From Pyropia yezoensis (Eukaryota; Rhodophyta; Bangiophyceae; Bangiales; Bangiaceae): a stretch of 64,000 bases of DNA. This document shows positions 10,556 to 49,368 of the stretch, in pieces (within the stretch, counting starts at the first letter, position 1; each line of letters starts with the position of its first letter). A model generated the notes under the pieces. The model was not told the DNA's origin, made no database searches, and saw nothing but the letters and a program-made list of their open reading frames with translations. The stretch covers positions 33,642,894-33,706,893 of the forward strand of contig CM020618.1 of assembly GCA_009829735.1 (NCBI GenBank), written 5' to 3'. The position numbers were made by a program, and so were the translations under genes.

Positions 10556-12925
10556 TCAGTGGGTAGACCCACTGCCCGAGGGAGGCCACTTTAGCGTAAA
10601 CGCGTACACCTCCATGCTCCACCGGTCGGCAATCTCACGACGGTCAACCGCCCGAGTTACCTCGGCGCATAGCTGGACGAGGGTGCAGCGACCAGCCTCC
10701 ACGTCCTCCAGAGCTGTCTGGAGGCGGTCCAGCACGCCACCGAAGCAACGCGTAGACCCAACTAGCGCAGCACCCGGGGGGATATCCCCCCAGCAAACAG
10801 AGAGACGCTCCCGCATCTCGCGGGCAATGGGGGCGTCAACGCCCTCATACCATAGACGGGGACCCCCGTCACGCATTACAGGGGCGGAAGGTGACACTGG
10901 TGCAGCCAGAGGAGCCACAGGAGCCGACACGGGTACCACCGGAGCCGGTGGCGCCTGATACGAGGCCCAGTAGGATCCCACTAAAGGGGCCCCACCGTAA
11001 ACCCGGCGGGGCTCCGCCCGACGACGGGACACCTCACGCTCCCCACCCGCAGAGTCCCACTCTCGGGGACGACGGCCAACCGTCACCGGTATCGGGTTGC
11101 CGAACCACGGGGCGAGGACCTGCAGAGGGTCATGGATAACCATGGGAATACCCAGGTCAGGAACACTTTCGGTGGACGCCCACCCACGGCAATTGGGCTC
11201 ACCCGGCTGAGCACGCCGTATGCGCAACGAGTGACGAGGCAAGGGGGCAGCCCCATCCTGCGGATCCCAGTACGGGGGAAGGGTCAACACCCCAGCCCAG
11301 TTCACGGCATCGTGAACGGCCAGCAGGTCCTCGAACACCCTTGCCAACCCGGTCTTGGCAGCAATCATGTCCACGCCCAGCTGCCCGATATGCGGATGGA
11401 CACCCGTCGGAAGATGAAACAGGCGCCCCTGCCGGCGGACGGACAGCTAGAAGGAGGAAGCCTGCCCGAGGGTAACCTCAAGGGTGAAGGTCCCCTGCAA
11501 CGGGTGGTCCGGCCGGGAGGCCAACATACTCCCGAAACATCGGAGACAGGAGCCGGTGTCAAACCGGAAAGCAGGGGCGGGTTCCCACGCCTCCTGCCAC
11601 TGAGGCGGGTGCACGGGAGTGTACACCGGCGCGCGACCGTTGCCGGTCTGCAACGCACACGTTATATCGGTGCGGAACGCATCCGCCATGACACCATGGT
11701 TGCGTCGCCAGCTCGACGCCGACTTCAACCCCGCCATAGGCGGGTAGAGAGCCGTCAACGTCAGATACGGGGACACCCCCGGGAAGTACTCAAAGTTGGG
11801 ATACCGGCCGGTGTCGCCCACCGTCTCCCCGAACGCCACCGGCTCCGCCGCCGACGCAACCCCCCGAGCACTAGCCGGGTAGTCAACTTCCCGCGGCAAC
11901 GCGGGGGCAACCAAGTCGCAGATCCCGAAGGCGGGGTTGAGGAAGACTTCACCCCGCCCCACCCGGGTGCGCCAGAGCTGCGCATGCCGGTCGTCCGGCT
12001 GACTCAGGACCCAATGATGTTCCACCCGGACCGCATTCGGCTGGTTGACCAGCCGCACTAACTCCCGCTCCCAACTCGGGTCCAACTTGACGCGCCGGGT
12101 GGACCCTCCACGGTGACGCGGCTGGTGGAAGTCCACCCGCATCCGCCCAGCGGAGTCCATGGACTCCTGCATAGTTAGGCCTCGAACCCGAGCCACCAAG
12201 TCAGACATCGACATGGCAGGTTGACCCGCCGCCAAGGCGACGCCGCCACCCAGCGGGGCAACCCGGGCTGGACCAGGAAGAATCGTGGGCGCCTGGGGGA
12301 GCCCCACCGGCAGATGGGCCGGCGCCGTAGGCGCACGGGGCCGAGGAGGAAAAAGAAGGGCGGGCGCCCGCCCGGAGTAGCTCCCGGAGTCCACCGCCAT
12401 CGGGGAAGACACGTCTTGACCACCTGTTGCCCGCAGCACCGCGGGCAGAGCATCGCGGCCACCCGGGCTCGACGTGGGCACCACGGGGGCGGAGGGGGTA
12501 GACCCGTTACCCGCCGCCACGGACACACCACCAACCGGGCGGGCACCCGCACCGTCTTGACCCGCCGTCCCGGCCGGGGTGCCGCCACGACCGTCCGACA
12601 CACCAGCTGCGCCGTCTTGGCGTAGTGCCGCGCCGGAACCGGCGACAGGAGCCATCCGGGTCGCCGGAGGAGTAGGAGTAGAAGCAGCCGCTACACGCGG
12701 TTTACCGCCACCCGACGGGGCCGTCGTGCCGCTGCACACGGACGACAACCCGCCCGGCGCGCCTTCCGAGCCACACGGACGGTTACCCGGTCGCCTTCGT
12801 CCTCCGACGAGCTCGCCAAGAAGCACCCGGCAGCTGTGGCAGAAGGGAACGTCGTCTTACATCACCTCCTCCTCCTCCTCAAGCATGAGGTCGTCCTCGC
12901 CCCCGGGTACCTGGGGGTCCGACAT
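10556..12925 (-). pseudogene. R2 antisense ORF (unknown function), two in-frame stops
   Basis: On the strand opposite to R2 gag-pol, starting from ATG at 12925 (MSDPQVPGGEDDL, acidic). About 790 codons in one frame with only two nonsense codons: TAA at 12857-12859 and TAG at 11447-11449 (R5 has Leu at the latter). The N-terminal 200 residues are Gly/Pro/Ala-rich. The middle has the conserved blocks SQPDDRHAQLWRTRVGR, PPMAGLKSASSWRRNHGVMAD and GRLFHLPTGV. The C-terminus has RLQTALEDVEAGRC and VTRAVDRREIADR. It is homologous throughout to the R5 ORF at 46922-49368 and locally to those of R4 and R6. No known domain is recognised. Confidence 0.75.
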
Positions 12926-13513
12926 GGTGGAGCCGGGGTAGCAGGGGCGCCTCGTGCCAAAAAGCCGCAGCCGGCTCGAACGGGTACAACGAACGCTCGC
13001 GCGGACGAGCCAGGGAAGCGCGGGCACCCGCGCTTATAACCACACAGCTCAGCACGAGCGATACGGCGGCGCGGGACGACCCGCGCCAGCCGGGCTACGA
13101 GGACGCTCCACCCAGGCACCTGGATCGGGGGCACGCCCCCCCACACGGGGTAATCAAGGGGGGTCACCCCCAACCGCCCGCACGCAACGCGGGCAGCCCC
13201 CGCCCCCCACTCAATCGTCCACACGAGAGGGGCCCCCCTACCACCAGACGCCTGGTGGCGAATCCGCTTGCACCACCCCACTGAAAGGGGGGTCGTGAAC
13301 AAAAACCCGCATCGGGAATTCAACGGTCCGGAAAACGGATCGTGTGTGTACCACACAAAGGGGGCCACCCCCCTCAGACAAACTCGAAAAGGGGTGTCTG
13401 TCGCGACAGGGCGCAAAGCCCCACCCGACTGGTTAACGGTCACGTGACCCACTTACATTCGGAAACCCGAATGCAACTTGACCCGAGGACGGGCCGAATC
13501 TAAGGGGGGGATA
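12926..13513. other. R2 leader of antisense ORF and polypurine tract
   Basis: No gene supported. The segment lies between the antisense ORF start and the 3' LTR. At 13500-13513 the plus strand reads CTAAGGGGGGGATA directly before the LTR: the polypurine tract that primes plus-strand DNA. R5 has the equivalent CTAAGAGGGGGATA. Confidence 0.6.
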
Positions 13514-13875
13514 TGTAGCAATATGGTTGACCGTATTGTGACCCTTTATTACGGGGGCTACTTCTAACCCTTAACTTTCAATTTGGGAGTCCGTACTGGT
13601 CACGGTATCTATAAGTTACGTATGACCAGCGGGACCTGTATCTTGGGGTGGAGGGTAGTGAGTAGTGTCTCCGAGGGTTTACAACGAGGGGGCCGGCGGC
13701 GAATCCACCGCCGGCCCAGGTAGAACAACAAACCCCTCCCATTTGGGCTCCCATCTTGGTCCCGTGGCCTGCGCTCCAAGGACAGCAACCTTGGCCTCCC
13801 GGTGACGTTCGCGCCGATCCCCCTTGGTGAGTGTTCCCGGAGAGTGGACGTGCAGCGGATACCTATTGTGCTACA
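13514..13875 (+). repeat. R2 3' LTR
   Basis: 362 bp from TGTAGCAATATGG to GTGCTACA. It aligns over its full length with the R5 LTR (362 bp, 56489-56850, opposite strand) and the R7 5' LTR (361 bp). Confidence 0.9.
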
Positions 13876-14233
13876 CCCATACGACACCGAGCGCTTCAAT
13901 CTCGGTAATGTGGTAATTTCTCTCGGCCGGGTTCAACGGCCGGGAGTAATACCCTACGGTGAGGTATTCCCCGTCGGGTTGCTGTTGTAGCCAACAACAG
14001 CCGAGCTGTTCACAGCTGGCCTGCACGTCCACTATATAGTGGCCGCCCATCGGGGGTATCGCTAGCACGGGGGGTGACAGAAGCAACCCCCGTAGCGTTT
14101 CGAAAGCGTTTCTCTCCACCTCTGTGGGTGGAGAGAGCTTCGTAGAAAGCTTGGTGCTCTTCAGCGCGGTAAGGGGCTTCACTTCTTTGGCGAAGTCCCG
14201 TACGAAGCGCCTATAGACGCCGCACATCCCCAA
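13876..14233 (-). pseudogene. pol: R3 RNase H, truncated by R2 insertion
   Basis: Reads MGMCGVYRRFVRDFAKEV, then YIVDVQASCEQLGC, GYYSRPLNPAERNY and TEIEALGVVWV, where the R2 LTR begins. By eye it is closest to R1 (shared Gln-rich LLQQQPD-type segment). The first RNase H catalytic Asp region is kept. The frame is shifted relative to the RT fragment upstream. Confidence 0.8.
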
Positions 14234-15324: not shown

Positions 15325-15731
15325 TGTGGAATATGTGTTACCCAATATAAAGGATATGGGACCGACCGGCGCTCGGAAGGCAAAGAGGAAGCTATTACCG
15401 TAGAGGCAAAGAAGACAGACCTTTAGCTCCTGGACGTTCGATGGGGAGCAAGCCGGCCGAAGGCAGCGGCGAGTCCCCACGTCGCAGATAAGGGCGAAAA
15501 CAATATGCCGGTCGAGCGACCGAGCGGAGGCCGGACGGCCGATCGCTACGAGCATAGCAATAAATATAAAAAATCCCTCCAAGGCAAGGACAGATAAACA
15601 ATACAAAACAAAAGTAGTCCCCCAAAGGGCGAGCCACAAGCGGACCCATGCCAACAAGGCTGGGGCCACCAGTCAGGGGGGCTACAAGCCAGTAAATACC
15701 GGAATTCGGTACAAGGGGCGGATATGCTACA
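15325..15731 (-). repeat. R4 3' LTR
   Basis: 407 bp, TGTGGAATATG to GATATGCTACA on the plus strand, matching 24894-25300. On the minus strand it is preceded by the polypurine stretch AACGGGGGTA (15732-15741). Confidence 0.92.
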
Positions 15732-16536
15732 TACCCCCGTTGCGAGCTTCGAGCCGTCCCGGCGAGGTCCGATCCGGTGCGGCCGGGCTGCCGGATGTGG
15801 CTACCTGCCAGCGTGCGGTGGAGGGGTCGCGTCCGCGTCGTCGTTCTGGAAGCACCGGGCCGTATGGCCGTCGGGCGCTGACTTGCATGCCTGGCCGGAC
15901 GCCTCGTTGGCAGGGCACTATAAGTGTCTGGCACGTCCGTGCCGCGGAGCACTTGGCCGTCGTTCGGCACGTCTTTTGACGGGTGCGCCGGCTCGACCGT
16001 CGGTCGTGGCCGGTGGCTGGCCAGTTGGCTCGTTACGCCCCGCCGAGGGGCACTACGCGGCTGCCGTTGGCTGGCGGCCGAGATCGGCCTGTGCCGCTAA
16101 GGGGCCAGTGCGGCCGTGCGGCAGGCGTGGCGGCACGGCAAGGGCGGCCACGCGGCGCGAGCGGTCAGGGGCGTCGGCCTGGCGGCAAGGGCGGCCACGC
16201 GGCGCGGTCGACCAAGGGTGTCGGCCGGGCGGCAAGGGCGGCCACGCGGCACGAGCGACCAAGGGCGTCGGCGCGAGGGCGGCCAAGTGCGGCCGTCGAA
16301 CGGCAAGGGCGGCCAAGCGGCGCGGTCGGCCAAGGGGCACGAGTGGTCAAGGGCGTCGCGTCTTGCGGCAAGGGCGGTTACGCGGCACGAGAGACCAAGG
16401 GCGTCGGGGCGAGGGCGGCCAAGTGCGGCCGTCGAACGGCAAGGGCGGCCAAGCGGCGCGGTCGGCCAAGGGGCACGAATGGTCAAGGGCGTCGCGTCTT
16501 GCCGGTTGGCGTCAGTTGCTTGTGGCTATTGCCAGT
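15732..16536. repeat. R4 leader of antisense ORF with tandem GC-rich repeats
   Basis: No separate gene is supported, although all frames are open because of composition. From about 16117 to 16505 it consists of repeats built on GGCAAGGGCGGCCACGCGGC-like units of about 46 bp, with a block of about 95 bp duplicated at an offset of about 136 bp (about 16273 and 16409). The array ends about 30 bp before the antisense ATG. TTGTGGCTATTGCCAG just before the ATG resembles a splice acceptor. Confidence 0.6.
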
Positions 16537-18423
16537 ATGGCAGACGAGGTTGCCCCGGTGGTGGGCGGTGGTGAGGCGGAGGCATCGCTTGATGTATGTG
16601 CGGGGGCCGCACGGCCGGTGGTGGGCTGGTATCGGAGCCCAAGGGCGACCTATATGTTTGACGGTGTCGGGTTCGTGGCGGACCCGCCGTTGATGGAGGC
16701 GGCGCGGACCAATCGGTCATTGGCTCTACAGCGTATCCGCGACGCGCGGTGGGCGTCGTTGCCCAACTTCCGGGACGCGTCAATCGACGGGCGGTTCTAC
16801 GAGGGCGAGTCCGTGTCGGACGTCCATGGTCATGCTGACTTTGGTCGTCAAGGGCCGGAACGGCAGGCGTACGAGGTGTTGTCGTTGTCCAACAAGTTGC
16901 TGCGGTACGGGGCGGCTGGTGGTCTTCACCCTTATCATCGGCGTCTGTACGCTTGGGCGCTTGCCTTTCGTGTCGGGCAAGTTGAGACCTTTGTGGTCGC
17001 GGCCAACAACTTCGGCCGTCTTCGCCGGCTGTGGCCTTCGGCCGTGTTCTTGGCACGTGACTTGGCCGAGCGGCTTGATGTGCCTATCGCGGAGGACCAT
17101 GGGCTAGAGGAGTATCTGGCCATGTTGGCTGACAAGGTTGCCCATGGGGTGCGTCCGGCGGGCGTCGAATTTGGTCCTGCGACCTGTTCGCTTCCTAACC
17201 CGTTCCGGGATCCGACGACGTCGATTCGTCTTCGAAGGTCGTGGGACCTGGCGGCCTTTGAGCGTCGCGGCCTTTTGGCGCCGGCTTGGGCGTCCAGCCT
17301 GGGGCGCGCACGCCCGTTCTTCGACCTGAAGCGTTGGCTTCCATCACGCCCATCGTGGTGGGTTGAGTACGGACCGTACATGGAGACGCCGGCGGCATTG
17401 TTGTACGTCACCAGTGGGCTTAAGGACGCAGATAACGCGGCTTGGGGCGTCGTGTACGACGAGTTCTTCTGCTTTGCCTTGGCGGCTTGGGTGCATTGGC
17501 TCGTCCATGACGGACTTTTTTGCTGGTTGCCGGACCAAGTGACCGAGTGGTTCGACGGGTTGGACGTGTCGCGGCTGGCCGATGGGCCCGGGGGTGAGGA
17601 GCGTCTTGCGACGTACCACCGTATGCGTGATGCACACGCCGTCTTCCCGTGGACAACCATTGTCGCCGACGTCCGCCGACGTGATGAGCGCACCAAGGCG
17701 GCTCGCCAGGTGTACGTCAAGTTGGACGCGACGGCCAAGTATGGCTTCGTTCTTCGTCAGCCGTGCGGCGCGTTTGATTGGAAGTATGACGCCTCGTGGG
17801 AGGGTGGTGACGAGTCGTCCGGACCGGGTCGTGGTCCCGGTCGTGGTCGTGAGACCGGTCGTCGGGTGCGGGACGCGTCTCGGTCGTTGTCGCCGGTGGC
17901 AGGTGCGGGGTCAAGTGACCGTGTTAACCCTGGTGTGGTTGCCCCTGTGTCCGGTGGGACCGGTGGCACGGAGCCGATCTGGCCGTCGGAGTGGGCCCGT
18001 GTGGGTGCTGTTGCCCTGTTGGGTACTGACCGGGTGGGTGCCTTGGCTGGGCAAGTGGTGCCTCGTGGCGCAACGGCTGGGGCGTTGGCCATTGCTTGGT
18101 CTCGTCAGACCGTGGAGATTGATGACGTTCTTCGTCGGGTCAGTGGGATGACTGAGTCGGAGGCCGTTGAGGCTTTGGTGTTGACGGTCTCCCGTTTGGC
18201 GGATCCGTCTCGCATTTGCGATAGCTTGCTCAGTGAGCTGCGTCGTGCGCCCTCGGTGGAGGCTCGGGCTGCGAGTCCTCGTCGTGTGGACGTTGGTGCC
18301 ATTCTTGGCGGTCGTCGTCGACAGATGTCGGATGACGAGGAGGAGGATGCGCCTCGTGCGCCGGCTCGGCGTGTGCGCTCGCGCAGTTCGTCTTTTGACG
18401 AGGGCTCGCGACGTCGCCGTTGA
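16537..18423 (+). CDS. R4 antisense ORF, 628 aa, unknown function
   Basis: An open frame on the strand opposite to gag-pol, ending 40 bp from the end of pol in tail-to-tail orientation. ATG at 16537 (MADEVAPVVGG) was chosen because the sequence upstream in frame is the repeat array. The centre is rich in Trp, aromatic and hydrophobic residues (FALAAWVHWLVHDGLFCWLP, then AHAVFPWTTIVADVRRRDE) and aligns by eye with GRLFHLPTGV...AHDAVNWTAV in R5 and LWHLPPTLV in R6. A helical C-terminal part is followed by an acidic stretch (DDEEEDAP) and a basic, Arg/Ser-rich end (RRVRSRSSS...RRRR) that could be a nuclear signal. No known domain was recognised. Confidence 0.75.
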   Translation: MADEVAPVVGGGEAEASLDVCAGAARPVVGWYRSPRATYMFDGVGFVADPPLMEAARTNRSLALQRIRDARWASLPNFRDASIDGRFYEGESVSDVHGHADFGRQGPERQAYEVLSLSNKLLRYGAAGGLHPYHRRLYAWALAFRVGQVETFVVAANNFGRLRRLWPSAVFLARDLAERLDVPIAEDHGLEEYLAMLADKVAHGVRPAGVEFGPATCSLPNPFRDPTTSIRLRRSWDLAAFERRGLLAPAWASSLGRARPFFDLKRWLPSRPSWWVEYGPYMETPAALLYVTSGLKDADNAAWGVVYDEFFCFALAAWVHWLVHDGLFCWLPDQVTEWFDGLDVSRLADGPGGEERLATYHRMRDAHAVFPWTTIVADVRRRDERTKAARQVYVKLDATAKYGFVLRQPCGAFDWKYDASWEGGDESSGPGRGPGRGRETGRRVRDASRSLSPVAGAGSSDRVNPGVVAPVSGGTGGTEPIWPSEWARVGAVALLGTDRVGALAGQVVPRGATAGALAIAWSRQTVEIDDVLRRVSGMTESEAVEALVLTVSRLADPSRICDSLLSELRRAPSVEARAASPRRVDVGAILGGRRRQMSDDEEEDAPRAPARRVRSRSSSFDEGSRRRR

Positions 18424-18463
18424 GGGGGGGTTGGGAGGTGGGGGTGTTGACGTACGGCTTGTG

Positions 18464-22276: not shown

Positions 22277-22279
22277 GGT

Positions 22280-22786
22280 CTAGTGTCGGCACAATCGTGC
22301 GTTTGGTTGAAGAGTAACCAGTCCCGGCGTGTCACATCTGACCATAATCCATTCCTCGGTCTTGCCCTTGAGGCGCGTTTGTTTGCAAGCACGGACCTTG
22401 GTCGACCCCCCGGCCCATTGGGGCTCCATGACGTCGTCTTGACGGATGCTCAGGATTGGGGAGTGGCCGATCGAATGGTTTTCAGCACCTTGCCAAACGA
22501 TACGTTTGCGGGCGGGCAGGATTGCCTCGATGTGCTTATCGATGAACTCGGTCCCGAGTATGCACTTGACCGACAGGTTGGGCGTAACGTAAAAACGTTC
22601 TAAGGCTTGAACCCCTCCGGTGTCGATGAACAAGTGGATGGCTTCGAGAGCCTTGATTGTTTGCCCGTTGGCATCAACAATGTGCGGTGCACTGGTTAAC
22701 GTGTCGGCGTAGTCGCGCCAATGTGGCGGTAGAACATCCGGCCGGATGAGGTTGACGCCAGCTCCGGTATCGAGGATGGGTCTCAT
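22280..22786 (-). CDS. pol: R4 aspartic protease region
   Basis: About 168 codons from MRPILDTGAGVNLIRPDVLPPHW (active-site DTG at residues 6-8) through YVTPNLSVKCILGTEFI, the usual protease C-terminal half. It ends in TAG at 22280-22282; the pol Met is two codons later in the same frame. This may be a nonsense mutation or programmed readthrough, and no second copy is available to decide. The open frame extends only a few codons upstream of this Met. Confidence 0.75.
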   Translation of the reverse strand: MRPILDTGAGVNLIRPDVLPPHWRDYADTLTSAPHIVDANGQTIKALEAIHLFIDTGGVQALERFYVTPNLSVKCILGTEFIDKHIEAILPARKRIVWQGAENHSIGHSPILSIRQDDVMEPQWAGGSTKVRACKQTRLKGKTEEWIMVRCDTPGLVTLQPNARLCRH

Positions 22787-22929
22787 ACTCCGCGTGCTCG
22801 CGAGCTCCGTGCCTATACAGGCGGCGATTTAATAATGTCGATGAGCTTTGCTCAGTATCTTGGTGACCTTAGGTCTATCTTGTCGGGCAGGCAAGGGTGC
22901 GTCGGGGAGACTGCCCGGTGGTCCTCGAC

Positions 22930-23064: not shown

Positions 23065-23073
23065 CACTCGTGC

Positions 23074-24675
23074 CTAACGTCGTTCACGACGGGGCTTAGG
23101 GCATCGAGAGGCAAAGTGTCCGCGCTCGTTACAGTTGTAACAGATGTCGTTCGCTCGCGGGTTGGGCGTGTCCGTGCGGACAGCCCTAATGGGGTCGAAT
23201 GGTCGATCGACCGTGCGCGCTGGGGGCTCAGGGGTAGAGTCGATTTGACTAACCTTGATCATGGCTGGCCGGCTGGCCTTGATGGACTGCCGCAGGCGCG
23301 TGGCGCCTTCCCAAAACCCTTGGGCAGCTGCCACTGTGTCCGCCATTGGGCGATCAGGGAACTGACTGTCCAGAACACGGACGCTTGGTTTGATGAGGTC
23401 TGAAAGACCGTTGATGAAAACATCCTTCACGTCTTGGGCGGAGAAGAGGCCACAGAGGCGATCGCACGCCGCCTTCACGCGGGAGGCAAACACGCGCGGG
23501 ACCTCTGTGTCCGCTTGATTCATCGTAATGATGTCGTGGTAGGCCGTTGCCAAACCGGCATGAGTTGCGTACTTCTTGAGAAGCCAGTTGACTCCTTCAC
23601 CATAGGTGGTGAGCTCGTAGTGCTTGCCACTGACAACCGTGTTGGCCGCGCTGGCGAATGCGCGCTTGGCGGCTCCCGCCAGCCGGAAGGCGATCAAGGG
23701 GAACGCCCGGCCGTGGGTCAGCCCTGCCGCGTCGCAAGCTCTGCGAAAGGTGGTGAGGAAGGTGAAAACACCGAGGGTGTCGCCACCGTTAAAGGTCTCT
23801 TGACCCTGGAACGCCCCGTCTAGGCGCTTGTTCATCTTGCTAGCATCTTTCACCATCGATGGTGTATACTTGGTGCTCCGTCGGAGAAGGAAGTAGGTCC
23901 TGTAGTCCAAGAGTGACTTAAAGCGACTGTTGCCGGGTCGAATGACCAACTTGCGGTCACCCAACTCCGTGAGTTCAGCTGCCGGCGCCGGTCGGCGCCG
24001 GAAACGACGCGCACGTCGACGGTGCGCGTCCGAACTTTCCGTAACGGAATCACTGCTCGATGAGGTCGGGCTTGACGGTGGGGAAGGGTCCCAACGACCG
24101 TCATAGGTTTCGTCCGAAGACGAGGAAGACGAGGACGACGAGTTGTCGGATGACATCCCATCATCAGCGGATGATGCGCCTCCCTCCCGGGCGTTCGAAC
24201 GCTTAGTCGAGACCCTGACCTTGAGGTCTTCGACTTGGCGCTCCAACGCGCGGATCCGGCGGTTCTTCATCTGAAGACTGCCAATAGGCAGGCTGGCGTG
24301 GGACGCCCCTTGAGCAGGTCCCCGGGTCATGTTGCCCACCGGCTGTCGGTTCGACGTCGTCCGTTGACGAAACGCCTCATTTGAGGGTGGCTTTCTCAGC
24401 TCCTCAAGAGTGGTCACCAGTTTGGTGTTAGACTTCTCCAACTCCTTGTTGGCGGCCTCTTGGGCCTCAAGACGGTCACGAAATGCCTCCACCACCGCCT
24501 TCAAGCTCTCCAACTTGGAGTTAGGAATATCCTCCGCGTCGGGGTTGGGGGGGGTAACCTCGGGTGCCGGACGGCGGCTTGTTCCGCTCCCTCCGCCTGG
24601 TGGCGTGTAACCCGAAGGCAGGGCAATCCCCTTACCCTTCGAGCGCCGAGCGCCATCAGGGGCTCCCGAAGCCAT
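23074..24675 (-). CDS. gag: R4 gag polyprotein with CCHC zinc knuckle
   Basis: 533 residues from ATG at 24675 (MASGAPDGARRSKGKG); an in-frame GTG lies 90 bp upstream. The order is a Pro/Gly-rich start, a coiled-coil-like segment (LEAQEAANKELEKSNTKLVTTL), a second short heptad region (RRIRALERQVEDLKVRV), a Ser/Asp-rich linker, a capsid-like region (NGGDTLGVFTFLTTFRRACD to EGVNWLLKKYA), and one knuckle CYNCNERGHFASRC near the C-terminus followed by basic residues. Intact by inspection. Confidence 0.88.
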   Translation of the reverse strand: MASGAPDGARRSKGKGIALPSGYTPPGGGSGTSRRPAPEVTPPNPDAEDIPNSKLESLKAVVEAFRDRLEAQEAANKELEKSNTKLVTTLEELRKPPSNEAFRQRTTSNRQPVGNMTRGPAQGASHASLPIGSLQMKNRRIRALERQVEDLKVRVSTKRSNAREGGASSADDGMSSDNSSSSSSSSSDETYDGRWDPSPPSSPTSSSSDSVTESSDAHRRRARRFRRRPAPAAELTELGDRKLVIRPGNSRFKSLLDYRTYFLLRRSTKYTPSMVKDASKMNKRLDGAFQGQETFNGGDTLGVFTFLTTFRRACDAAGLTHGRAFPLIAFRLAGAAKRAFASAANTVVSGKHYELTTYGEGVNWLLKKYATHAGLATAYHDIITMNQADTEVPRVFASRVKAACDRLCGLFSAQDVKDVFINGLSDLIKPSVRVLDSQFPDRPMADTVAAAQGFWEGATRLRQSIKASRPAMIKVSQIDSTPEPPARTVDRPFDPIRAVRTDTPNPRANDICYNCNERGHFASRCPKPRRERR

Positions 24676-24874
24676 ATCGCAACCCGGCGTACTTGCGTCG
24701 GCGCGCCCTGCGTCGCCAACCAAAAGGTCCTCGTGGCACGACGCCCGGCGTCGTCCAGCCTTCACTGATCGGTGATGTCGCCCTGCAACACCCGATCAAG
24801 AGATCGTCAACACAACTGCCACAAGGCACCAAGGAACACGTACGAGTGTACGGCAGCGCCGCACACGAGCAGTA

Positions 24875-24892
24875 TCCCCTGCTGCTCCACCA
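24875..24892 (-). other. R4 primer binding site
   Basis: Minus strand TGGTGGAGCAGCAGGGGA, 1 nt inside the 5' LTR and identical to that of R1, R5 and R7. Confidence 0.88.
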
Positions 24893-24893
24893 A

Positions 24894-25300
24894 TGTGGAA
24901 TATGTGTTACCCAATATAAAGGATATGGGACCGACCGGCGCCCGGAAGGCAAAGAGGAAGCTATTACCGTAGAGGCAAAGAAGACAGACCTTTAGCTCCT
25001 GGACGTTCGATGGGGAGCAAGCCGGCCGAAGGCAGCGGCGAGTCCCCACGTCGCAGATAAGGGCGAAAACAATATGCCGGTCAAGCGACCGAGCGGAGGC
25101 CGGACGGCCGATCGCTACGAGCACAGCAATCAATATAAAAGATCCCTCCAAGGCAAGAACAGATAAACAATACACAACAAAAGTAGTCCCCCAAAGGGCG
25201 AGCCACAAGCGGACCCATGCCAACAAGGCTGGGGCCACCAGTCAGGGGGGCTACAAGCCAGTAAATACCGGAATTCGGTACAAGGGGCGGATATGCTACA
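24894..25300 (-). repeat. R4 5' LTR
   Basis: 407 bp, TGTGGAATATG to GATATGCTACA on the plus strand, followed outside by target duplication GATAT. Confidence 0.93.
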
Positions 25301-32119: not shown

Positions 32120-32138
32120 CTCCGGAAGAACGTCAGCG

Positions 32139-40905: not shown

Positions 40906-41228
40906 TGTAGCAGTACTCCCAACCACCAACCCCGAGTCAGGGAAGGAAGGAGAGTATTGCCGATATCCCAACTTGGGACACCGGAAGCAAGCACCTCCAC
41001 ACAGCCGAACACAAAGCGTAGAAATCCGTCTGGCTCCCGTGCAAAAATCCCAAGAAACAAATACCAGCAGCATCACCCTGCACTAGTATGCCGGAAGTCC
41101 TAGTCGAATTTCCATCCAAAAGTCAGAAGATTCACCATCGTGGGTCGGGTGAATTTCGACTTCCAGTCGGGTCTACTTGACCCGAATCTCCGAAGTATTG
41201 GTACCGCATTCTGGTCCAATCTCCCACA
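40906..41228 (-). repeat. R6 3' LTR, 218 bp shorter than its partner
   Basis: Aligns with 45543-46083 except for the segment 45650-45867, which is missing here at GCCGAACAC/AAAGCG. Confidence 0.85.
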
Positions 41229-42453
41229 TTTCCCACTTCTCAAAAGTCCAGCCGTCCCGGTGGACGTCCAATCAGCTGCGAGTCGCAGTGACTGGGAGAG
41301 GAGGGTGCAATTCCCGAGTCGGGCAGTAAGATACGGTGCATCGCTTGCGTCTCGCGTGCACCAGGGTTACGCCGGGGTTGCACTCGCGTCCGGCGGGACC
41401 CTCCGGGAGAGGCAATCCCTCTCCGTGGGGTGCGCTCTCTGCCCTGACACTGGGCAGCGGGGCTCCCTCCACGCGAAACCGGTGTGGGGAGAAGTCATCC
41501 CTCACCTGGTTAGAGTGCTCCACAGGTGGACTCCCGTGTGGGTGCGCCCCCTAACCTGGGTGTTGGCGTCTCCCCGTCACATACCCCTGCTCCTCAACTG
41601 GAGGAGTAGGGCATCGACGTTCTCACTCGGAGCGTCGACCTGCACCTGCCCCTTTAGTTGGGGTACGGTTGCTCTGGGGGGGTTCGGGTTGTACCCCCCC
41701 CTTAAGACTCGAACTACCCGCAGCTGGCTCTCTGCGGGGGTGTCGCACTCTGTCGCCGTCGGTGGTGTGTTTCTCGGCCGCCGGTGCGGGGTGATCTTTC
41801 CCCTTCGTGTGTGTGCGGGCGGGTGTGTGTCTTCCCGCCGCTGTTCCCTCGCTTCGGCGTTTCTGCCCCTTCTCGCCGTGCAGTCGGTGTCGTCTCGGGG
41901 GGGTTGTCGTTCCCCCCTCCGCCCCTGTGTCGGGCGTGGTCGTTGTCGTTTGGGGGTGCGGGTCGGGTCCCCCCCCTTGTGTTCTTCCTTTGCGGGGGTG
42001 TGTCTCCCCCGTCTCCGCCCCTGTGTCGGGCGTGGTCGTTGTCGTTGGGGGGTGCGGGTTGTGTCCCCCCCCCTTTTGGTTCTTGCCGGGCGGTTTGTCT
42101 TTCCCGTCTCCGCCCCTGTGTCGGGCGTCGGTGTCTGTCGGGGGGTGTGGGTCGTGTCCCCCCCCCTTTGGCTCTTCCCTGTCGGGGGGTGTGTCGCCCC
42201 CGTCTCCGCCCCTGTGTCGGGCGTCGTTGTCGTCTGTGGGGGGGTGCGGGGTTGTTCCCCCCCCCGTGTCATGGCCAAGGTCGGGTCAACCTGGTGGTCG
42301 TCAAGGAGGGGGAGCGGGTCGTGTCTCCCCCCGTGCTCAACCTCACCGAGTTGGTCAAGGTTGTCAGACGTGTCGGTCGAGGGGGTGTGGGTCGTATCCC
42401 CCCTCTAGAGCTCAACCTCACCGAGTTGGTCAAGGTTTTTTTTTTTTTTAGAG
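41229..42453. repeat. R6 leader of antisense ORF with tandem repeats
   Basis: Four units of about 95 bp based on GTCTCCGCCCCTGTGTCGGGCG followed by G- and C-runs (about 41905-42270), then two copies of CTCAACCTCACCGAGTTGG (42339 and 42413). A T14-AG run (42436-42451) lies immediately upstream of the antisense ATG and resembles a splice acceptor. Open frames here follow the repeats and are not supported as genes. Confidence 0.65.
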
Positions 42454-44370
42454 ATGGCGGGTGAGCCGAGTCGGCCGCTGTCCCCTACGCCCACGTCGCT
42501 GTCGGACAAGCGACGGGCGGGTGAAGGGGCCATCGGGACTGAGGAGTCTCTTAGCCGGTGGTCGGCTATGGAGACGACTCGTCCCGGGCGAGGGTCGGAG
42601 GCGGCCGCCTCGGCCGTCCCCGCCCCGTCACCCTCTACCGTTCCTTCGGCTGTGGTCCCACCGGGGAAGGGGTCTTCCAACCCGGTGGCGGAAGGGGATG
42701 TGGCTCCCATTCCCCGTCTACCAGAGTCGCGGTTGCTACTCCCGCCGCGGCCCCGTCCTCCTGTGTGGCCCCGAGCCTGGGCGCCTCCCAAGTCAGTCGG
42801 GGAGCTTCCGGACTGCAAGCTCAAAGAGACCTACGTGGTCATTCCTGAGCCACGGCGGACCGACGTGTGGTACCGCCGGACTCGTCGGTACCCCAACCAG
42901 GTGTCACTACCTGAGGGAGTGGTCTGCGATCTACCGGCACTAATCTGCCTGGCGGTCGCGCCTGGGGTCCAGGCGTTGTCAACCTCTCTCGCCATGGGCT
43001 CAGGCGACGTGGAGATCTACAACACCTGTGCGGTGGTGGCTACCGAGTGGTGTGCCCTCCCTCGTCCCTACTTGGGAGGACAGGACGCCCACGCCCATCA
43101 CGGCGTGGTGCGAGAGGAGTTCCGACTCCGGGGCTCCTCTGGGTTCCTCATCCACGGGTCGCGGGTGGAGTTCACCCACGTACCTCTGGAGGAGCGTGAG
43201 CACCAGTACCCTTTACTCCCGGGGTGGTGGGAGAGGGTGGAAGTACCCTTTGGGTTTCCGGCTCGGATCCCACTCCTCGTAGCCTACTTTGGCTCTGTGT
43301 TACGCTCCAGCTCGGGGGGTAACCGGGTCCTCGCCTACCTCGCCACGCACTGGGTGGTCGTGGTTGCAAGGGGCTGGTACTCCGATGTAGTCCATTGGGG
43401 TTACCTATGGCATCTTCCACCGACTCTGGTGGAAGGTATGGAAACCCTTGACTACCACTGGTTAGCCTTGGGTGCGGGGGACCTGGCTTCATACCTCCTC
43501 AAGGGTATAGTCACCCTGCACAATCGACTCGATTGGGAGCAGTTGGACCCCTTCCTCCGCCGCAACAAGCGTACGGAGCCGGGGTTGGAGAGTGAACCAC
43601 CCCGGGACTTTGTCCATGTCACCCAAACTCTGGTGCAGGGGCAGCTACTCCTGCGTGAGGGGTTGGGGGACCCTTCTCTTCCTTCCGCGGAGGGGGTCAC
43701 TCCCTCTACGTCGCCCTCTAGCTCTGGGTGTGCGACGTCATCGGCGACGACTCGTCGTGGTGCTCGTCGGGGCCTCCCTCGGAGCCGCGGGCGAACCGCG
43801 CCTACGTCTTCCCCGCGGGTCGCGACTCCGACCTCGGGGGGAGTGGAGCCAGCTCAGGCTCCACCCTTTCACTTCCTCGAGCCCTTCCCTGACGTGGGGC
43901 TGGGTTCGCTACGGGTCCGAACTCCGGTACCCATGCCGATCGCGCGTGGCGTCGGCGAGATGCTTCCCAACCTGGGAGCCATCATGTATGACGCCACGGT
44001 GGAGGCCTCACTCGTGGCCTCCCTTGACACGCTGGCTTGGGTCACCCGGCGTGTAAGTCACTTCCTTGCGTCGGGTGACTCAGCCACGGCGCGCCAGACG
44101 TTGGCAGCAAAGGTAACTCGCCTCGCTGTTGGACATGAGTTCGTCCAACGGCTGCTGTCGAATCAGCAGCAGCTCCCGCGTCACGGAGGGAGTACCTCCG
44201 GACATCTTTCTTACGACGGGGATGGGTCCGCGAGTCGGCGGGGCCCTCCCAGTACTACCACTCCTGTGCCTCCTCGAGTGGGATACGCCCCTCCGTTTCC
44301 GTCCTACGACCCTGGTGCTCCATGGTCGGGCGGTCCCTATAGTAGTGGGGGAGGGCGCATGGAGCGCTAG
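42454..44370 (+). CDS. R6 antisense ORF, 638 aa, intact, unknown function
   Basis: Starts MAGEPSRPLSPTPTSL. The first 110 residues are Pro/Ser-rich. The central part (about 115-400) is rich in aromatics: YFGSVLRSSSGG, THWVVVVARGWYSDVVHWGYLWHLPPTLV and LLKGIVTLHNRLDWEQLDPFLR. These align by eye with YFGSVLAPRPTH, GRLFHLPTGV and LVAAHDAVNWTAVATLPPFR in the R5 antisense ORF. A Ser/Arg-rich linker and a helical C-terminal domain follow (GEMLPNLGAIMYDATVEASL, WVTRRVSHFLASGDSATARQ), then a Gly/Ser/Pro tail. Not interrupted by any stop, in contrast to the pol of the same element. It converges with the integrase fragment, with 111 bp between them. Confidence 0.75.
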   Translation: MAGEPSRPLSPTPTSLSDKRRAGEGAIGTEESLSRWSAMETTRPGRGSEAAASAVPAPSPSTVPSAVVPPGKGSSNPVAEGDVAPIPRLPESRLLLPPRPRPPVWPRAWAPPKSVGELPDCKLKETYVVIPEPRRTDVWYRRTRRYPNQVSLPEGVVCDLPALICLAVAPGVQALSTSLAMGSGDVEIYNTCAVVATEWCALPRPYLGGQDAHAHHGVVREEFRLRGSSGFLIHGSRVEFTHVPLEEREHQYPLLPGWWERVEVPFGFPARIPLLVAYFGSVLRSSSGGNRVLAYLATHWVVVVARGWYSDVVHWGYLWHLPPTLVEGMETLDYHWLALGAGDLASYLLKGIVTLHNRLDWEQLDPFLRRNKRTEPGLESEPPRDFVHVTQTLVQGQLLLREGLGDPSLPSAEGVTPSTSPSSSGCATSSATTRRGARRGLPRSRGRTAPTSSPRVATPTSGGVEPAQAPPFHFLEPFPDVGLGSLRVRTPVPMPIARGVGEMLPNLGAIMYDATVEASLVASLDTLAWVTRRVSHFLASGDSATARQTLAAKVTRLAVGHEFVQRLLSNQQQLPRHGGSTSGHLSYDGDGSASRRGPPSTTTPVPPRVGYAPPFPSYDPGAPWSGGPYSSGGGRMER

Positions 44371-44481
44371 AGTCAGCGGTGAACGACTTTGAAGAGTGGT
44401 GTGTGTCTTTCTCGTTTCGTGTTGTGCCATAGTCGGCTTTGTTTGTAGAGAGTCTTTTGAAGAACCATGTTATGTGCATAC

Positions 44482-45402
44482 TCATGGTTGACTTGCCGCT
44501 TTGCTCTGACCTGGAGCATGGACTTCATCCCCCGACGTACGAGTGGTACGTCGGCGTATAGATATGCCTGTGGCCTGGCAATATCGACGGACCTTCTCTA
44601 CTGGTAGGTCCTCTATAAACTCCCATGTGTCGGAAGTTGGGCCATACCCAAACCACCTGACTCGGAGCATGAGTCGCCCCGACTCATCGTATCCGTGGAG
44701 TAGAGAGGCTTTCGCCTGACTCGGTGTTTGAGTCCAAGTCTCACCCTCGGTCTGGGTGAGGCGTTCCACAGCTATTGATGGAAGTCGTCGGGGACAGACG
44801 AAGGCAAACGGTGCCTCTCCCGTACTACTGTGTACCTGGGAGTTGTATGCTGTCACGAGTAGTGACGCAAAACGAGCCCATGTGACTACATGGTCATGGA
44901 CATAGTGACGCAACTGGCGCACTAAAGTCCTATTGAATCGTTCCACCTGTCCATTAGTCTGGGGGTGGTAAGGGGTGGCGAAGTTTGTCTGCACCCCCAA
45001 CATCTTCATGACTCCCTGATACAGGACGTACGCAAACTTTGGTCCGTTATCCGAAAGGATAGAGTCAGGAATGCCATAACTGGCAATCCAGACGTCGAGC
45101 AACGCGCTCAGGACGTCCACGGCGGTTCTATCATTAAGTGGGGATACCCGTGCGAGCTCAGTAAAGCGATCACATATCCCCAGAAGGTACTCATATCCTT
45201 CTGGAGTTCGTGGTAGTGGACCGTGTAAGTCCACTGCTATCGCTTCGAACGGCTCGGTTGCAGGAAAGAGTCTCATGGCAAGGTAGTCAAGCAAGGGAGT
45301 TCCTGAAGCACGTTCCACCCTTCCACATACCTCAGGGAAGGCGGTGAGGTTTCTCGAAACTCCGGTTCTCCCACCGAGGCCCACGGTGGCCGACCTCGTC
45401 AC
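44482..45402 (-). CDS. pol: R6 integrase core with chromodomain, truncated
   Basis: About 306 codons. An unrelated short lead is followed by the DDE core: AIAVDLHGPLPRTPEGYEYL, ILSDNGPKFAYVLYQ and YHPQTNGQVERFNRTLVRQL, so all three acidic residues are kept. The zinc-binding N-terminal domain is gone. After SIAVERLTQ the usual C-terminal stretch is shortened, joining to LHGYDESGRLMLRVRWFGYGPTSDTWEFIEDLP, a chromodomain. The open frame starts about 120 bp from the primer site, which marks one large deletion of gag, protease, RT and RNase H. Confidence 0.8.
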   Translation of the reverse strand: MTRSATVGLGGRTGVSRNLTAFPEVCGRVERASGTPLLDYLAMRLFPATEPFEAIAVDLHGPLPRTPEGYEYLLGICDRFTELARVSPLNDRTAVDVLSALLDVWIASYGIPDSILSDNGPKFAYVLYQGVMKMLGVQTNFATPYHPQTNGQVERFNRTLVRQLRHYVHDHVVTWARFASLLVTAYNSQVHSSTGEAPFAFVCPRRLPSIAVERLTQTEGETWTQTPSQAKASLLHGYDESGRLMLRVRWFGYGPTSDTWEFIEDLPVEKVRRYCQATGISIRRRTTRTSGDEVHAPGQSKAASQP

Positions 45403-45522
45403 CCAGCGAACGCTCGGAACGTAGGCGAGTTGATCGGGTCACCGGAAGTCTCGGTGCCGAAGGGGGAGAGGGGCCAACTTGGTCCCTTCTCCGGTCAAGG
45501 GAGGTACCAAATCGATATCCAC

Positions 45523-45540
45523 TTCCCCGCTGATCCACCA
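45523..45540 (-). other. R6 primer binding site
   Basis: Minus strand TGGTGGATCAGCGGGGAA, 2 nt inside the 5' LTR. It differs from the site of R1/R4/R5/R7 at a few positions. Confidence 0.75.
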
Positions 45541-45542
45541 AC

Positions 45543-46083
45543 TGTAGCAGTACTCTCAACCACCAAACCCGAGTCAGGGAAGGAAGGAGAGTATTGCCGA
45601 TATCCCAACTTGGGACACCGGAAGCAAGCACCTCCACACAGCCGAACACGGAACTTGCGTGTGGTGAGCGGGTCCACTCACCAAGGGCACGAACAAGATG
45701 TCTTGGAGCCAGACGGTGTTTACTTGCTTGACCAACCAAGGTGGGCCCTCCCCGCCTAGCTGTCCCCCCTTATCAACCCTTCTCACACGCTCACGCATCC
45801 CCGCAAAAACACTCAGAAAATGAACACTCAAACAAACCAATCAAATCATGCCACACGCAAAGCACTCAAAGCGTAGAAATTCGTCTGGCTTCCGTGCAAA
45901 AATACCAAGAAACAAATACCAGCAGCATTACCCTGCAATAGTACGCTGAAAGTCCTAGTCGAATTTCCGTCCAAAAGTCAGAAGATTCACCATCGTGGGT
46001 CGGGTGAATTTCGACTTCCAGTCGGGTCTACTTGACCCGAATCTCCAAAGTATTGGTAACAAGTTCTTGTCCAATCTCCCACA
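45543..46083 (-). repeat. R6 5' LTR
   Basis: 541 bp, TGTAGCAGTACTC to CTCCCACA on the plus strand. Contains the 218-bp segment 45650-45867 absent from the 3' LTR. Confidence 0.87.
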
Positions 46084-46088
46084 CACGA

Positions 46089-46336: not shown

Positions 46337-46921
46337 TATCCCCCTCTTAGATTCGGCCCGTCCTCGGGTCGATCCGCATTCGTTTTCCGAATGTAAGTGG
46401 TCACGCGACCGGTTACCAGTCGGATGGGCTTTGCGCCCTCTCGCCACAGCCACCCCTTTCCGGGATGACCTCAGGGGGGTACCCCCCTCCGCATGACCTC
46501 TAAGCGATCCGTTTTCCGGACCGTTGAATTCCCGATACGGGTAGTGAGTAACGACCCCCTCCCCTGTGGGGACGGGCTGTAAGCGTATCCGCCACAAGTC
46601 ATCTGGTGGCAGGGCAGCCCTACTCGGGTGAACGAGTGGACGCGGGGCTACCCGCTTTTCGCGGGGGCGGTTGCGGGTTGACCCGCCCTCAATCCTCCCG
46701 TGTGGGGCGTGGCTCCGGCCCAGGGGCCTGGGAGGAGCGCGCTCGTAGCTCCGTGTGGCGCGGGTCGCCGTGCGCCCCTGTGCCGCCCCTTGTCGGGGTT
46801 TCGGTGGTCATAAGCGCGGGTACCCACGCTTCCCCGGCTCATCCCGGTTTGTCATACCGTGCCGGGTCGGAGCCGGCGACGGCTTGTGAGCACGGGGGAC
46901 CCCTGCCACCTCGGTTTCATC
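46337..46921. other. R5 leader of antisense ORF and polypurine tract
   Basis: No gene supported. 46337-46350 on the minus strand is CTAAGAGGGGGATA, the polypurine tract. The rest corresponds to 12926-13513 of R2. Confidence 0.6.
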
Positions 46922-49368
46922 ATGTCCGACCCCGAGGTACTCGGGGAGGAGGAAGACCTCGTTGTCCCGGAGGAGATGGAGGACGACGCACCGGTCGGTC
47001 CGACTCCCTCCGGGTGCTTCCTGGCCAGCTCGTCGGACGAAGACACGCCGGTGGCCGTCCGTTTGTCGGCCGGAGGACTGTCGTCCGTTTGCAGCCGCAC
47101 GACGGCGCCGTCGGTTGGCGGTCGACCGCGGGTGGCTGCTTCTACTCCTTCTCTTCCGGCTCCTTCTCTTCCGGCTGCCCGGGCGGGGCCTGGGGCCTGT
47201 GCCGGCGTGGCCATGCTTCCTGAAGGTACTTCCGGCGGCGGTGGAGGCGTTTCCCTGCCGGCTCCGGCGGGGCAAGGTGGTCCGGGTGTCCGTCCGCCCC
47301 TCTCTCGGGACGGTGCGGGCGTTGAAGTGGGTGGTGGTGGCGGCGCATTGCCCGGCGTAGCGAGTCAAGATGGTGCGGGTGCCCGCTCGGCCGGCGTTCC
47401 GGCCCTGGGGGCTGAACCCGTGCCCTCCCCGTCCGAGGCGGGGGCGACGTCGGCGGGTGGTGCCGGCGACGGTACCCTACCCGCGGTGCCGGGGGCGGCA
47501 AGCGGTCAAGACGCTTCTTCTCCGATGGCGGTCGACACCGGGAGTTACTCCGGGCGGGCGCCCGCCCTTCTTCTTCCTCCCCGACCCCGCGCTCCTGCGC
47601 CGGCGCCTCTACCTGTCGGTGTCGCGCCGAAGCCGGCGCTTCTTCCTGGGCCTGCTCGGGTTGCCCCTCTTGGTGGCCGCGCCGGTTCATCCGGTGGCGG
47701 TGTAGCATCGCTTGGTGGAGGCGACGCCGCTGCGGTGGGACACCCCCCGATGTCAGTCTGCGAGGTGGTGGCTGGAGAACGTCGCCTAACCGTCCCAGAG
47801 TCGATGGACTCTGGCGGTAGGATGCGGGTGGACTTCCACCCGCCGGACTACCTCGAGGGTACCTCCCGTCCGGTCCCGCTGGGCCCCTGTTGGGAGCGGG
47901 AGTTGGCTCGGCTGGTCGCCCAGCCGGACGCCTTTCGCGTCGAGCATAATTGGATCCTGAGTCAGCCGGATGACCGGCATGCTCAACTCTGGCGTACCCG
48001 GGTCGGGCGGCCTGAGGTTGCCCTCCATCCCGCTTTCCGGGTGTGAGACTTGGTCGCTCCCGCGCTGCCGCGGGAGGTGGATTACCCCGCTGGTGCCCGT
48101 GGGGTCGCTGCATCGCAGGACCCGTGGCGTTCGGGCGGGTTGTGCCTGGGACCAACCGGTATCCCGGTTTGGATTACTACCCGGGGGACCCCCCGTATCT
48201 GTGGCTGACGCCAGCCTTCCCGCCCATGGCTGGGCTGAAGTCGGCGTCGAGCTGGCGTCGCAACCATGGTGTCATGGCGGACCCTTTCCGCACTGATATC
48301 ACGTGCGCGTTGCAGACCGGTTACGGTCGTGCTCCAGTGTACTCTCTGTTGCGCCCGCCTGGGTGGCAAGACGGGTGGGAGCCCGCCCCGGCTTTCCGGT
48401 TTGACACTGGTCCCTGCCTTCATTACTTCGGGAGTGTGTTGGCCCCCCGGCCTACGCATGCGCTGCAGGGTGTCTTCACCTTGGGGGTTACCCTCGGGCA
48501 GGTCTCCTCCTTCCTGCTGTCGGCTCGCCGACGGGGCCGCCTGTTCCATCTTCCGACGGGCGTCCGTCGGCACCTTGGGGATATAGGCGTTACCGCCATT
48601 GCTGAAGGGACGGGTCTCACCCGTGAGTTGGCGGCGCTGGTGGCCGCTCACGATGCTGTGAACTGGACGGCGGTGGCAACCTTGCCTCCGTTTCGGGACG
48701 CGCAGCCGGGAACGCTCCCGCTGCCTCGCCACTCGCTCCGTATCCGCCGAGTTATCTCGGGGGAAGATGGATACCAAGGGTGGGCGTCCACCGAGTCGGT
48801 TCCTGACCTGCGTATTCCCGTGGTCCTTCCTGACCCTCTCCAGGAGATGACCCCCTGGTTCGGTAGCCCGACCCCTGTGTGTCGCCGTCGCCGTGAGTGG
48901 GAATCCACCGGTGGGGGCCGTGAGACATATCGCCGTCGTGCCGAGTTCCGCCGGGTTCCCGGTGGCCGTTATGCCCAGGAGTCTGGTGCTTCTTCGCGGC
49001 CGTACCGTGCTCCGTACCCGGCACTGCCGGCTCCGGTGGTGGCTGTGTCCTCACAGCCGGCTCCGACTCCAGTCCCTCCGGTTGCGCCGGTGGCTTCGAC
49101 GGGTCCCGTCGTGCCTGACGGGGGTCCCCGTTTGTGGTATGAGGGCGTATCCGCCCTTATCTTTCGTGAGTTTTCGGGGGCGCCCCCGGTTGACTGGGGG
49201 GATAACCCCCCTGGTGGTGAGGTGTTAGGTACTGCGCGTTGCCTTGACTGGGTGCTCAACCGCCTCCAGATGGCTCTGGAGTCTGTAGAGGCTGGTCACG
49301 GCACTCTGCTGGAGCTCTGCACTGAGGTAACGCAGGCGATTGACCGGCGCGAGGTAGCCGACCGTTGA
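46922..49368 (+). pseudogene. R5 antisense ORF, about 815 codons, one stop and one frameshift
   Basis: ATG at 46922, MSDPEVLGEEEDLVVPEEMEDD (acidic), on the strand opposite to gag-pol. Open until TGA at 48044-48046, where R2 has Cys (FGICDLVAPALP). A slip near 48110-48125 then moves the frame (R2 AEPVAFGE against GPVAFGR here), after which it is open to 49368. Domain order as in R2: Gly/Ala/Pro-rich first 280 residues, SQPDDRHAQLWRTRVGR, PPMAGLKSASSWRRNHGVMAD, YFGSVLAPRPTH, GRLFHLPTGV, AHDAVNWTAV, a Pro/Val-rich linker, and the helical end LNRLQMALESVEAGHG...VTQAIDRREVADR. Function unknown. Confidence 0.75.

What the first reader, a model, noticed from the sequence alone, without database searches (positions are those of the whole stretch)
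10556..49368. A long antisense ORF between pol and the 3' LTR in four Ty3/gypsy elements
R2 (10556-12925), R4 (16537-18423), R5 (46922-49368) and R6 (42454-44370) each carry a reading frame of about 630-815 codons on the strand opposite to gag-pol, ending tail-to-tail with the chromodomain end of pol. Every element whose 3' half is in the window has it. Antisense extra ORFs are known in some plant Ty3/gypsy lineages of the Tat group, but here the protein was not recognised and the elements encode chromodomains.
Basis: partly seen in the sequence, partly recalled or inferred. Interest (0 to 1): 0.88.

Follow-up and report, generated by a model that had tools for sequence, protein, structure and literature searches.

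The report
Ancient antisense gene in algal retrotransposons
Retrotransposons in a red seaweed genome carry an extra gene on the opposite strand, next to their enzyme gene; selection has kept its protein sequence, it has travelled with these elements as they split into at least six types, and it resembles no protein family we could find.

Summary
The antisense ORF is real and is a gene. In the window it is intact in R4 (628 codons) and R6 (638), broken by two stops in R2 and by a frameshift in R5. Named database relatives all come from Pyropia vietnamensis, a red alga. The window's own genome gave 62 R4-type loci, 92 R2-type rows and 103 R6/R1-type rows (lower bounds), mostly without stops in the stretch scored. 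dN/dS is 0.14-0.25 between diverged R4-type or R6-type copies, 0.36-0.39 between R2 and R5. Six element types were found, each tail-to-tail with pol where examined; they form one very divergent family whose tree broadly agrees with the pol tree. Pfam, NCBIfam and PDB sequence searches found nothing significant; fold models are poor. Two derivative lineages lost the body of the gene but kept its leader and part of its first ~50 codons, and appear to have multiplied since, so the product is probably trans-acting or dispensable. Such antisense ORFs are known in plant Retand/Grande and fungal Boty elements; this is a new variant, in chromodomain elements of red algae, with no TRP28 domain. Best guess: a trans-acting regulatory accessory protein; its biochemical role is not shown.

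The parts
16537..18423 (+). R4 antisense ORF, intact, 628 codons
   Evidence: relatives P0001-P0005; dN/dS 0.139 to L020 and 0.211 to L051
42454..44370 (+). R6 antisense ORF, intact, 638 codons
   Evidence: relatives P0006-P0009; dN/dS 0.238 to L053
10556..12925 (-). R2 antisense ORF, broken by in-frame stops at codons 23 and 493
   Evidence: P0010 86.5% over 468 aa
46922..49368 (+). R5 antisense ORF, broken by a frameshift (stop-free frames 46814-48046 and 48016-49368)
   Evidence: relatives P0010-P0019
18464..22279 (-). R4 pol: RT, RNase H, integrase, chromodomain and a C-terminal tail
   Evidence: Pfam, (integrase core below its cut-off, integrase zinc-binding domain above)
23074..24795 (-). 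R4 gag with CCHC zinc knuckle
   Evidence: Pfam zf-CCHC
15325..15731 (-). R4 3' LTR; target-site duplication GATAT flanks the element
   Evidence: 98.3% to the 5' LTR, flanks read
24894..25300 (-). R4 5' LTR; a tRNA-type primer-binding sequence lies just inside it
16136..16502 (.). Tandem repeats (17/47/71/136-bp units) in the leader between the R4 3' LTR and the ORF's ATG
   Evidence: TRF; also in L002, L006, L010
41896..42265 (.). 96-bp tandem repeats in the leader of the R6 antisense ORF
   Evidence: TRF
44482..45438 (-). R6 remaining pol: integrase core and chromodomain; gag, PR, RT and RNase H are missing
40906..46083 (-). R6 whole element, nested in the R5 3' LTR; TSD CACGG/CACGA
50700..54236 (-). 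R5 pol region (two frames, plus a broken C-terminal end down to 49972)
5905..10159 (+). R2 pol region (several frames), 87% DNA identity to R5
13503..13885 (+). R2 3' LTR
1..5338 (-). R1, element cut by the left edge; its antisense ORF lies just outside the window (L065 189-2360)

Best explanation
This is an antisense accessory gene belonging to a lineage of chromodomain Ty3/gypsy elements in a bangialean red alga. Shown: it is protein-coding and under purifying selection; it sits tail-to-tail with pol in six diverged element types; its tree broadly agrees with the pol tree, so it has been inherited with the element; its body has been lost in two separate element types, in lineages with several copies. 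Inferred: it is transcribed from a promoter in the leader between the 3' LTR and its ATG, towards pol; the protein acts in trans on the element's DNA or RNA as a regulatory accessory factor (transcription, anti-silencing or nuclear handling of element RNA) rather than as an envelope; derivatives that lost the body rely on relatives for the protein and keep the leader because it is the cis part (promoter or binding region).
For: dN/dS 0.139 (bootstrap 0.105-0.177) R4 vs L020, 0.211 R4 vs L051, 0.238 and 0.246 R6 vs L053 and L054. Other frames of three of these alignments give ratios above 1, except the mirror frame (0.28-0.39), which has 9-16 stops per sequence. Association: 20 of 20 R4-type loci (R4 itself included) and 23 of 29 R2-type loci (R2 itself left out) have the pol end in opposite orientation within the 1.5-kb flank. 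Of 62 merged R4-type loci, 45 have pol tail-to-tail within 3 kb and 0 have it on the same strand nearby (which used 64 of the 140 pol rows and all 71 ORF rows). R6-type, R1-type, F5 and F6 loci examined have the same layout. Both trees give (R2,(R4,F5)) against R6, F4 and F6. Body losses: R4-related L061-L064 and F6-related L068/L069. No strong transmembrane segment in the ten proteins scanned, apart from one before the ATG of L071 and a borderline one in R6. Arginine/lysine clusters exceed shuffles in F4 (0 of 300), P0002 (5), F5 (6) and P0007 (15). Leader tandem repeats lie just upstream of the ATG in R4, R6 and F6 types and are kept in body-less L061, L062, L064, L068 and L069.
Against: No transcript evidence was available. 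No nucleic-acid-binding domain was recognised. Both AlphaFold models are poor (mean pLDDT 46.4 and 35.5). Basic clusters are not general: R4, R6, R2, P0003, F6 and P0011 do not exceed shuffles. No leader repeats were found in the R2-type and F4 loci examined. Trans-complementation is inferred, not seen: 19 of 64 pol rows have no R4-type ORF nearby, and a merely dispensable protein would explain that too, though not the low dN/dS. Inside R6/F4/F6 the two trees differ, with weak ORF support.
Confidence: 0.5

Rival explanations
1. It works like a VANC-type anti-silencing factor: a fast-evolving protein that recognises the element's own tandem repeats and removes silencing from the whole family, including derivatives that no longer encode it.
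For: Leader tandem repeats next to the ATG in three of six types, with different units in R4 and L020. Body-less copies of both loss lineages kept leader repeats. Branches of the ORF tree are several times longer than those of the pol tree. VANC targets are tandem repeats that co-evolve with VANC (PMC5735166, passages read).
Against: No leader repeats in the five R2-type and two F4 loci examined. DNA binding and methylation effects are untested, and so is any sequence link to VANC.
Confidence: 0.2
2. The antisense RNA itself is what matters (dsRNA or small RNAs that restrain the element); the protein is incidental.
For: Convergent genes only 40-396 nt apart in R4, R6 and R2, so 3' ends of transcripts would probably overlap. 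Antisense regulation of this kind is discussed for plant elements (PMC7264820 section 8).
Against: Purifying selection specific to the protein frame, and types related by protein profile although very diverged.
Confidence: 0.08
3. It is an env-like or particle protein.
For: Same place, between pol and the 3' LTR, as env-like ORFs (PMC7264820 abstract).
Against: Antisense orientation; maximum 19-residue hydropathy 1.2-1.65 in the R4-, R2-, F4- and F5-type proteins scanned; R6 1.81; F6 L071 2.47, but before its ATG.
Confidence: 0.04
4. It is a captured host gene or an inserted DNA-transposon gene, kept as a passenger.
For: Its origin is unknown; some extra ORFs in other elements arose by capture (PMC7264820 abstract).
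Against: No host-gene relative was recognised and no Pfam transposase matched, although the genomic place of the database relatives could not be checked. Largely congruent trees mean one old acquisition and then retention under selection.
Confidence: 0.1

Closest known systems
Antisense ORFs of plant Retand elements (Tat group), domain TRP28/Transposase_28, PF04195
   [quoted passage not shown] tandem repeats in the same region in about half; possible DNA binding proposed (PMC11963269, abstract and passages read)
   Different: Retand is a non-chromovirus lineage; no PF04195 match in the proteins scanned or in the six-frame search of this genome
Maize Grande gene23, rice RIRE2, PvRetro13 antisense ORFs
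   Same: Position and orientation; conservation said to be similar to other element proteins; Grande protein is nuclear and has its own upstream promoter (PMC7264820 sections 5, 7, 8)
   Different: Different host lineage; their protein sequences were not compared here beyond Pfam
Boty of Botrytis (fungal element with an antisense ORF)
   Same: Antisense ORF between pol and 3' LTR outside plants (PMC7264820 section 5)
   Different: Protein not compared here
Plant and fungal chromoviruses
   Same: Ty3/gypsy pol with a chromodomain after integrase
   Different: Recalled, from a paper that is not held (Steinbauerova et al.): extra ORFs are rare in plant chromoviruses and lie in 5' regions
VANC anti-silencing proteins of Arabidopsis VANDAL elements
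   Same: Element-encoded, partly fast-evolving protein and family-specific tandem repeats (PMC5735166, passages)
   Different: VANDALs are DNA transposons (recalled); function here is only an analogy

Membership tests
Ty3/gypsy LTR retrotransposon | LTRs, TSD, gag with zinc knuckle, pol in order RT-RNase H-integrase | tested here: met
   R4:
Chromovirus (chromodomain Ty3/gypsy) | Chromodomain after integrase | tested here: met
   R4 E 2.9e-9, above cut-off; R6 and R2 only below cut-off
Retand-type antisense ORF element | Antisense ORF between pol and 3' LTR | tested here: met
Retand-type antisense ORF element | ORF protein has the TRP28 (PF04195) domain | tested here: not met
   No match at E<=10 in 17 aligned members, 6 further proteins or the genome (no control genome passed the cut-off, so that search has no positive control)
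Retand-type antisense ORF element | Non-chromovirus element, no chromodomain | tested here: not met
   R4 has a chromodomain
Env-like extra ORF | Sense orientation | tested here: not met
Env-like extra ORF | Transmembrane segments | tested here: inconclusive
   Hydropathy scan of ten proteins only: nine show no clear segment inside the ORF, R6 has one borderline window (1.81)
VANC-like anti-silencing factor | Sequence-specific binding to the element's tandem repeats and loss of methylation | not testable with these tools
   Only the presence of leader repeats was checked
One antisense-ORF family across the six types found here | Profile similarity between types | tested here: met
   hhalign R4-R6 E 4.6e-6, R6-R5 2.2e-5, F4-R6 2.3e-35, F4-R5 3.5e-6, F4-R4 1.3e-4; hmmsearch in a small set of ORFs: R4 profile to F5 5e-14, R6 profile to F6 4e-29. 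Direct R4-R5: not significant (25, 50)

The most novel reading that the evidence does not exclude
A previously undescribed retrotransposon accessory protein family, ancestral to the chromodomain Ty3/gypsy elements of bangialean red algae and co-inherited with pol ever since, that acts as an element-encoded anti-silencing or regulatory factor on the leader repeats, with natural satellite lineages that dropped the gene but kept its target.
Probability: 0.2. Interest if true: 0.85.

Novelty: new variant of a known kind. Interest (0 to 1): 0.6.

Why it matters
The function of antisense ORFs between pol and the 3' LTR is described as unknown (PMC7264820 section 5). Here is a set with strong selection, hundreds of copies, descent that largely follows pol and two natural loss lineages, which makes their function testable and places the arrangement in chromodomain elements of red algae. 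It also defines a large uncharacterised protein family that annotations list only as hypothetical proteins.

Tried and rejected

Prokaryote genome contigs: none for R6.

SR-protein idea: RS/SR dipeptides are not enriched over shuffles in R4, R6, F4 or R2-type proteins, so dropped. F5 has an arginine/serine-rich tail by eye but was not in that test.

Profile controls: of 320 column shuffles (180, 140) the medians were 15-17, against 43.6-54.2 for the real pairs; but at least seven shuffles scored 133-143 (two or more, where only maxima were printed, five or more). The five seen align 7-64 columns at a profile end; I take them for an edge artefact of the program, but did not prove it. The direct R4-R5 score, 16.2, is no better than shuffles.

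In-print check: searches for red-algal LTR elements with antisense ORFs listed no paper describing this. I saw titles and abstract beginnings, and passages of two listed papers (PMC2864245; PMC5408684). Most subscription papers are not held.
Full report
What is in the window. Four Ty3/gypsy elements whose 3' halves lie in the window (R2, R4, R5, R6) have a long ORF on the strand opposite to gag-pol, between the end of pol and the 3' LTR. R4 (15325-25300) is a full element with 98.3% identical LTRs and a GATAT target-site duplication, gag with a zinc knuckle and pol with RT, RNase H, integrase and chromodomain; its antisense ORF is open (628 codons from ATG 16537). R6 (40906-46083) is nested in the 3' LTR of R5, with a 5-bp duplication differing at one base; it has lost gag, protease, RT and RNase H but its antisense ORF is open (638 codons). 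R2's ORF has two internal stops and R5's a frameshift.

Is it a gene? Against 200 dinucleotide shuffles, the R4 and R6 frames are far longer than chance; the R2 and R5 pieces only slightly exceed the longest shuffle. Protein searches with the R4, R6 and R5 versions gave 5, 4 and 10 relatives; the ten with an NCBI name are hypothetical proteins of Pyropia vietnamensis, the other nine carry no name. R2 against R5: 9 of 13 internal gaps are multiples of three, changes by codon position are 188/156/299, and dN/dS is 0.39, 0.36 and 0.38 over three pieces, against 0.15 and 0.30 for two pol pieces.

The window's own genome. It is held as G000, 107.5 Mb in 11 contigs, three of them 43.6, 34.3 and 29.4 Mb. 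The tool does not name it; size and three large contigs fit Neopyropia (Pyropia) yezoensis as I recall it. R4-type: 71 match rows, 62 loci after merging; of 31 rows covering at least 620 of 628 residues, 22 have no stop (my count). R2-type: 92 rows, 64 without a stop in the searched piece (my count). R6 core: 140 rows; of 83 rows covering the core at 84-100% identity (R6 itself included), 73 have no stop; 20 more rows at 35-36% are the R1 type, 19 without a stop (my counts). The tool calls such counts lower bounds.

Selection. R4 against L020 (86% protein identity): dN/dS 0.139; against L051 and L052 (72%): 0.211; L020 against L051: 0.183; R6 against L053 and L054: 0.238 and 0.246. Between types (R6 against L055, L056) it is 0.40-0.43 with synonymous sites saturated. 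Twenty-eight pairs among eight open R2-type copies: 0.29-0.67, a weaker signal at low divergence. Four very close R4 copies are uninformative (0.40-0.73, wide ranges). As a control, three of these alignments were read in all six frames: only the ORF frame is free of stops; the mirror frame also gives a ratio below 1 (0.28-0.39) but has 9-16 stops per sequence, and the other frames exceed 1. The neighbouring pol gives 0.073 (R4, L020) and 0.37 (R6 integrase, L057).

Position. 20 of 20 R4-type loci (R4 included) and 23 of 29 R2-type loci (R2 itself set aside) show the pol end in opposite orientation within the 1.5-kb flank. Taking the first 64 of the 140 pol C-terminal rows and all 71 ORF rows, 45 of 64 pol ends have an R4-type ORF tail-to-tail within 3 kb, median distance between matches 56 nt; 45 of 62 ORF loci have pol, and none has pol on the same strand nearby.

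More types. R1, cut by the left edge of the window, has its antisense ORF just outside (L065, 724-codon frame), of the type called F4 here (L055, L056). Six further elements were sampled from weaker matches to the R4 integrase-chromodomain end: L066 and L067 carry an antisense ORF matched by the R4 profile (E 5e-14 and 3e-10; type F5), L070 and L071 one matched by the R6 profile (E 4e-29 and 2e-28; type F6), and L068 and L069 gave no match. Profile comparisons link all types, directly or through others; the direct R4 to R2/R5 comparison failed. An alignment of representatives shows one shared stretch, roughly R4 residues 255-400, with a G-x-L/F-x-x-L motif in most rows. Using one unbroken pol stretch per element, the pol tree is (R2,(R4,F5)) against R6, F4 and F6 (supports 0.99-1.00); the antisense-ORF tree has the same main grouping with weaker support (0.77-0.87 for the whole, 0.78-0.85 for the core). 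Inside R6/F4/F6 pol joins R6 with F4, while the ORF joins R6 with F6 at 0.07 (whole) or 0.74 (core).

Losses. Of 19 pol rows without an R4-type ORF nearby, four were examined (L061-L064). L061, L062 and L064 keep an R4-like LTR (88.7-91.3%); L063 shows none in the 3.2 kb fetched. All four keep a remnant of the ORF's start (residues 24-43, 17-43, 17-43 and 1-53; with a stop inside in L061-L063), but the body is gone and other sequence of about half a kilobase stands between the remnant and pol, alike among them. L068 and L069 repeat this in type F6: they are 95-96% and 92-93% identical to L070/L071 over the pol end, then carry 0.52 kb of other sequence and resume 48 codons inside the ORF, keeping its ATG and leader. 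L068 and L069 lie on different contigs and share the same junction, so most simply they multiplied after the loss. The gene therefore seems not to be needed in cis. R6 is the converse: gag to RNase H gone, ORF kept.

How it most likely works. Selection on the protein, position and descent are shown. A trans-acting regulatory accessory role is inferred from the losses, from the lack of strong membrane segments, and by analogy with plant antisense ORFs, whose protein is nuclear and has its own upstream promoter in Grande (PMC7264820 sections 5, 7, 8). Leader tandem repeats just upstream of the ATG in R4, R6 and F6 types, kept in body-less copies, make binding to them, in the manner of VANC proteins, an attractive but unproven version. 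The five R2-type and two F4 loci examined show no such leader repeats.

What it is among known things. It fits the known kind 'antisense extra ORF between pol and 3' LTR' (Retand, Grande, RIRE2, PvRetro13, Boty). It is not a Retand-type element: chromodomain present and TRP28 not found. Five paper searches listed nothing on such ORFs in red algae. I rate it a new variant of a known kind.

Noticed in passing
L066 2-766 (+) and L067 2521-3201 (-): The pol of F5-type elements has, after the chromodomain region, a tail matching Pfam Dam (DNA N6-adenine methyltransferase, PF05869, E 7.6e-8 and 9.8e-8, above the cut-off). R4 pol has a related tail (27% over 233 aa in L066) that does not match Dam.
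   Followed up: partly
window 40906-46083: R6 is a nested element without gag, RT and RNase H that retains LTRs, the integrase end and an intact antisense ORF; downstream of related ORF copies, L057 and L060 hold the RNase H and integrase region of pol, L057 also the end of RT.
   Followed up: partly
window 49703-49885: 24-bp near-palindromic tandem repeats (CTTAG..CTAAG) between the facing pol and antisense ORF ends of R5; a similar motif occurs in the R2 gap.
   Followed up: no
window 28939-33716: RNase H-like and protease-RT fragments of another element in unusual order on the + strand.
   Followed up: no
window 24870-24894, 45520-45543, 56440-56489: R4 and R5 share the same putative primer-binding sequence next to the 5' LTR; R6 has a variant of it.
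   Followed up: no
L061-L064, L068-L069: Both body-less lineages kept part of the first ~50 codons of the antisense ORF; why the cut falls there is unexplained.
   Followed up: partly
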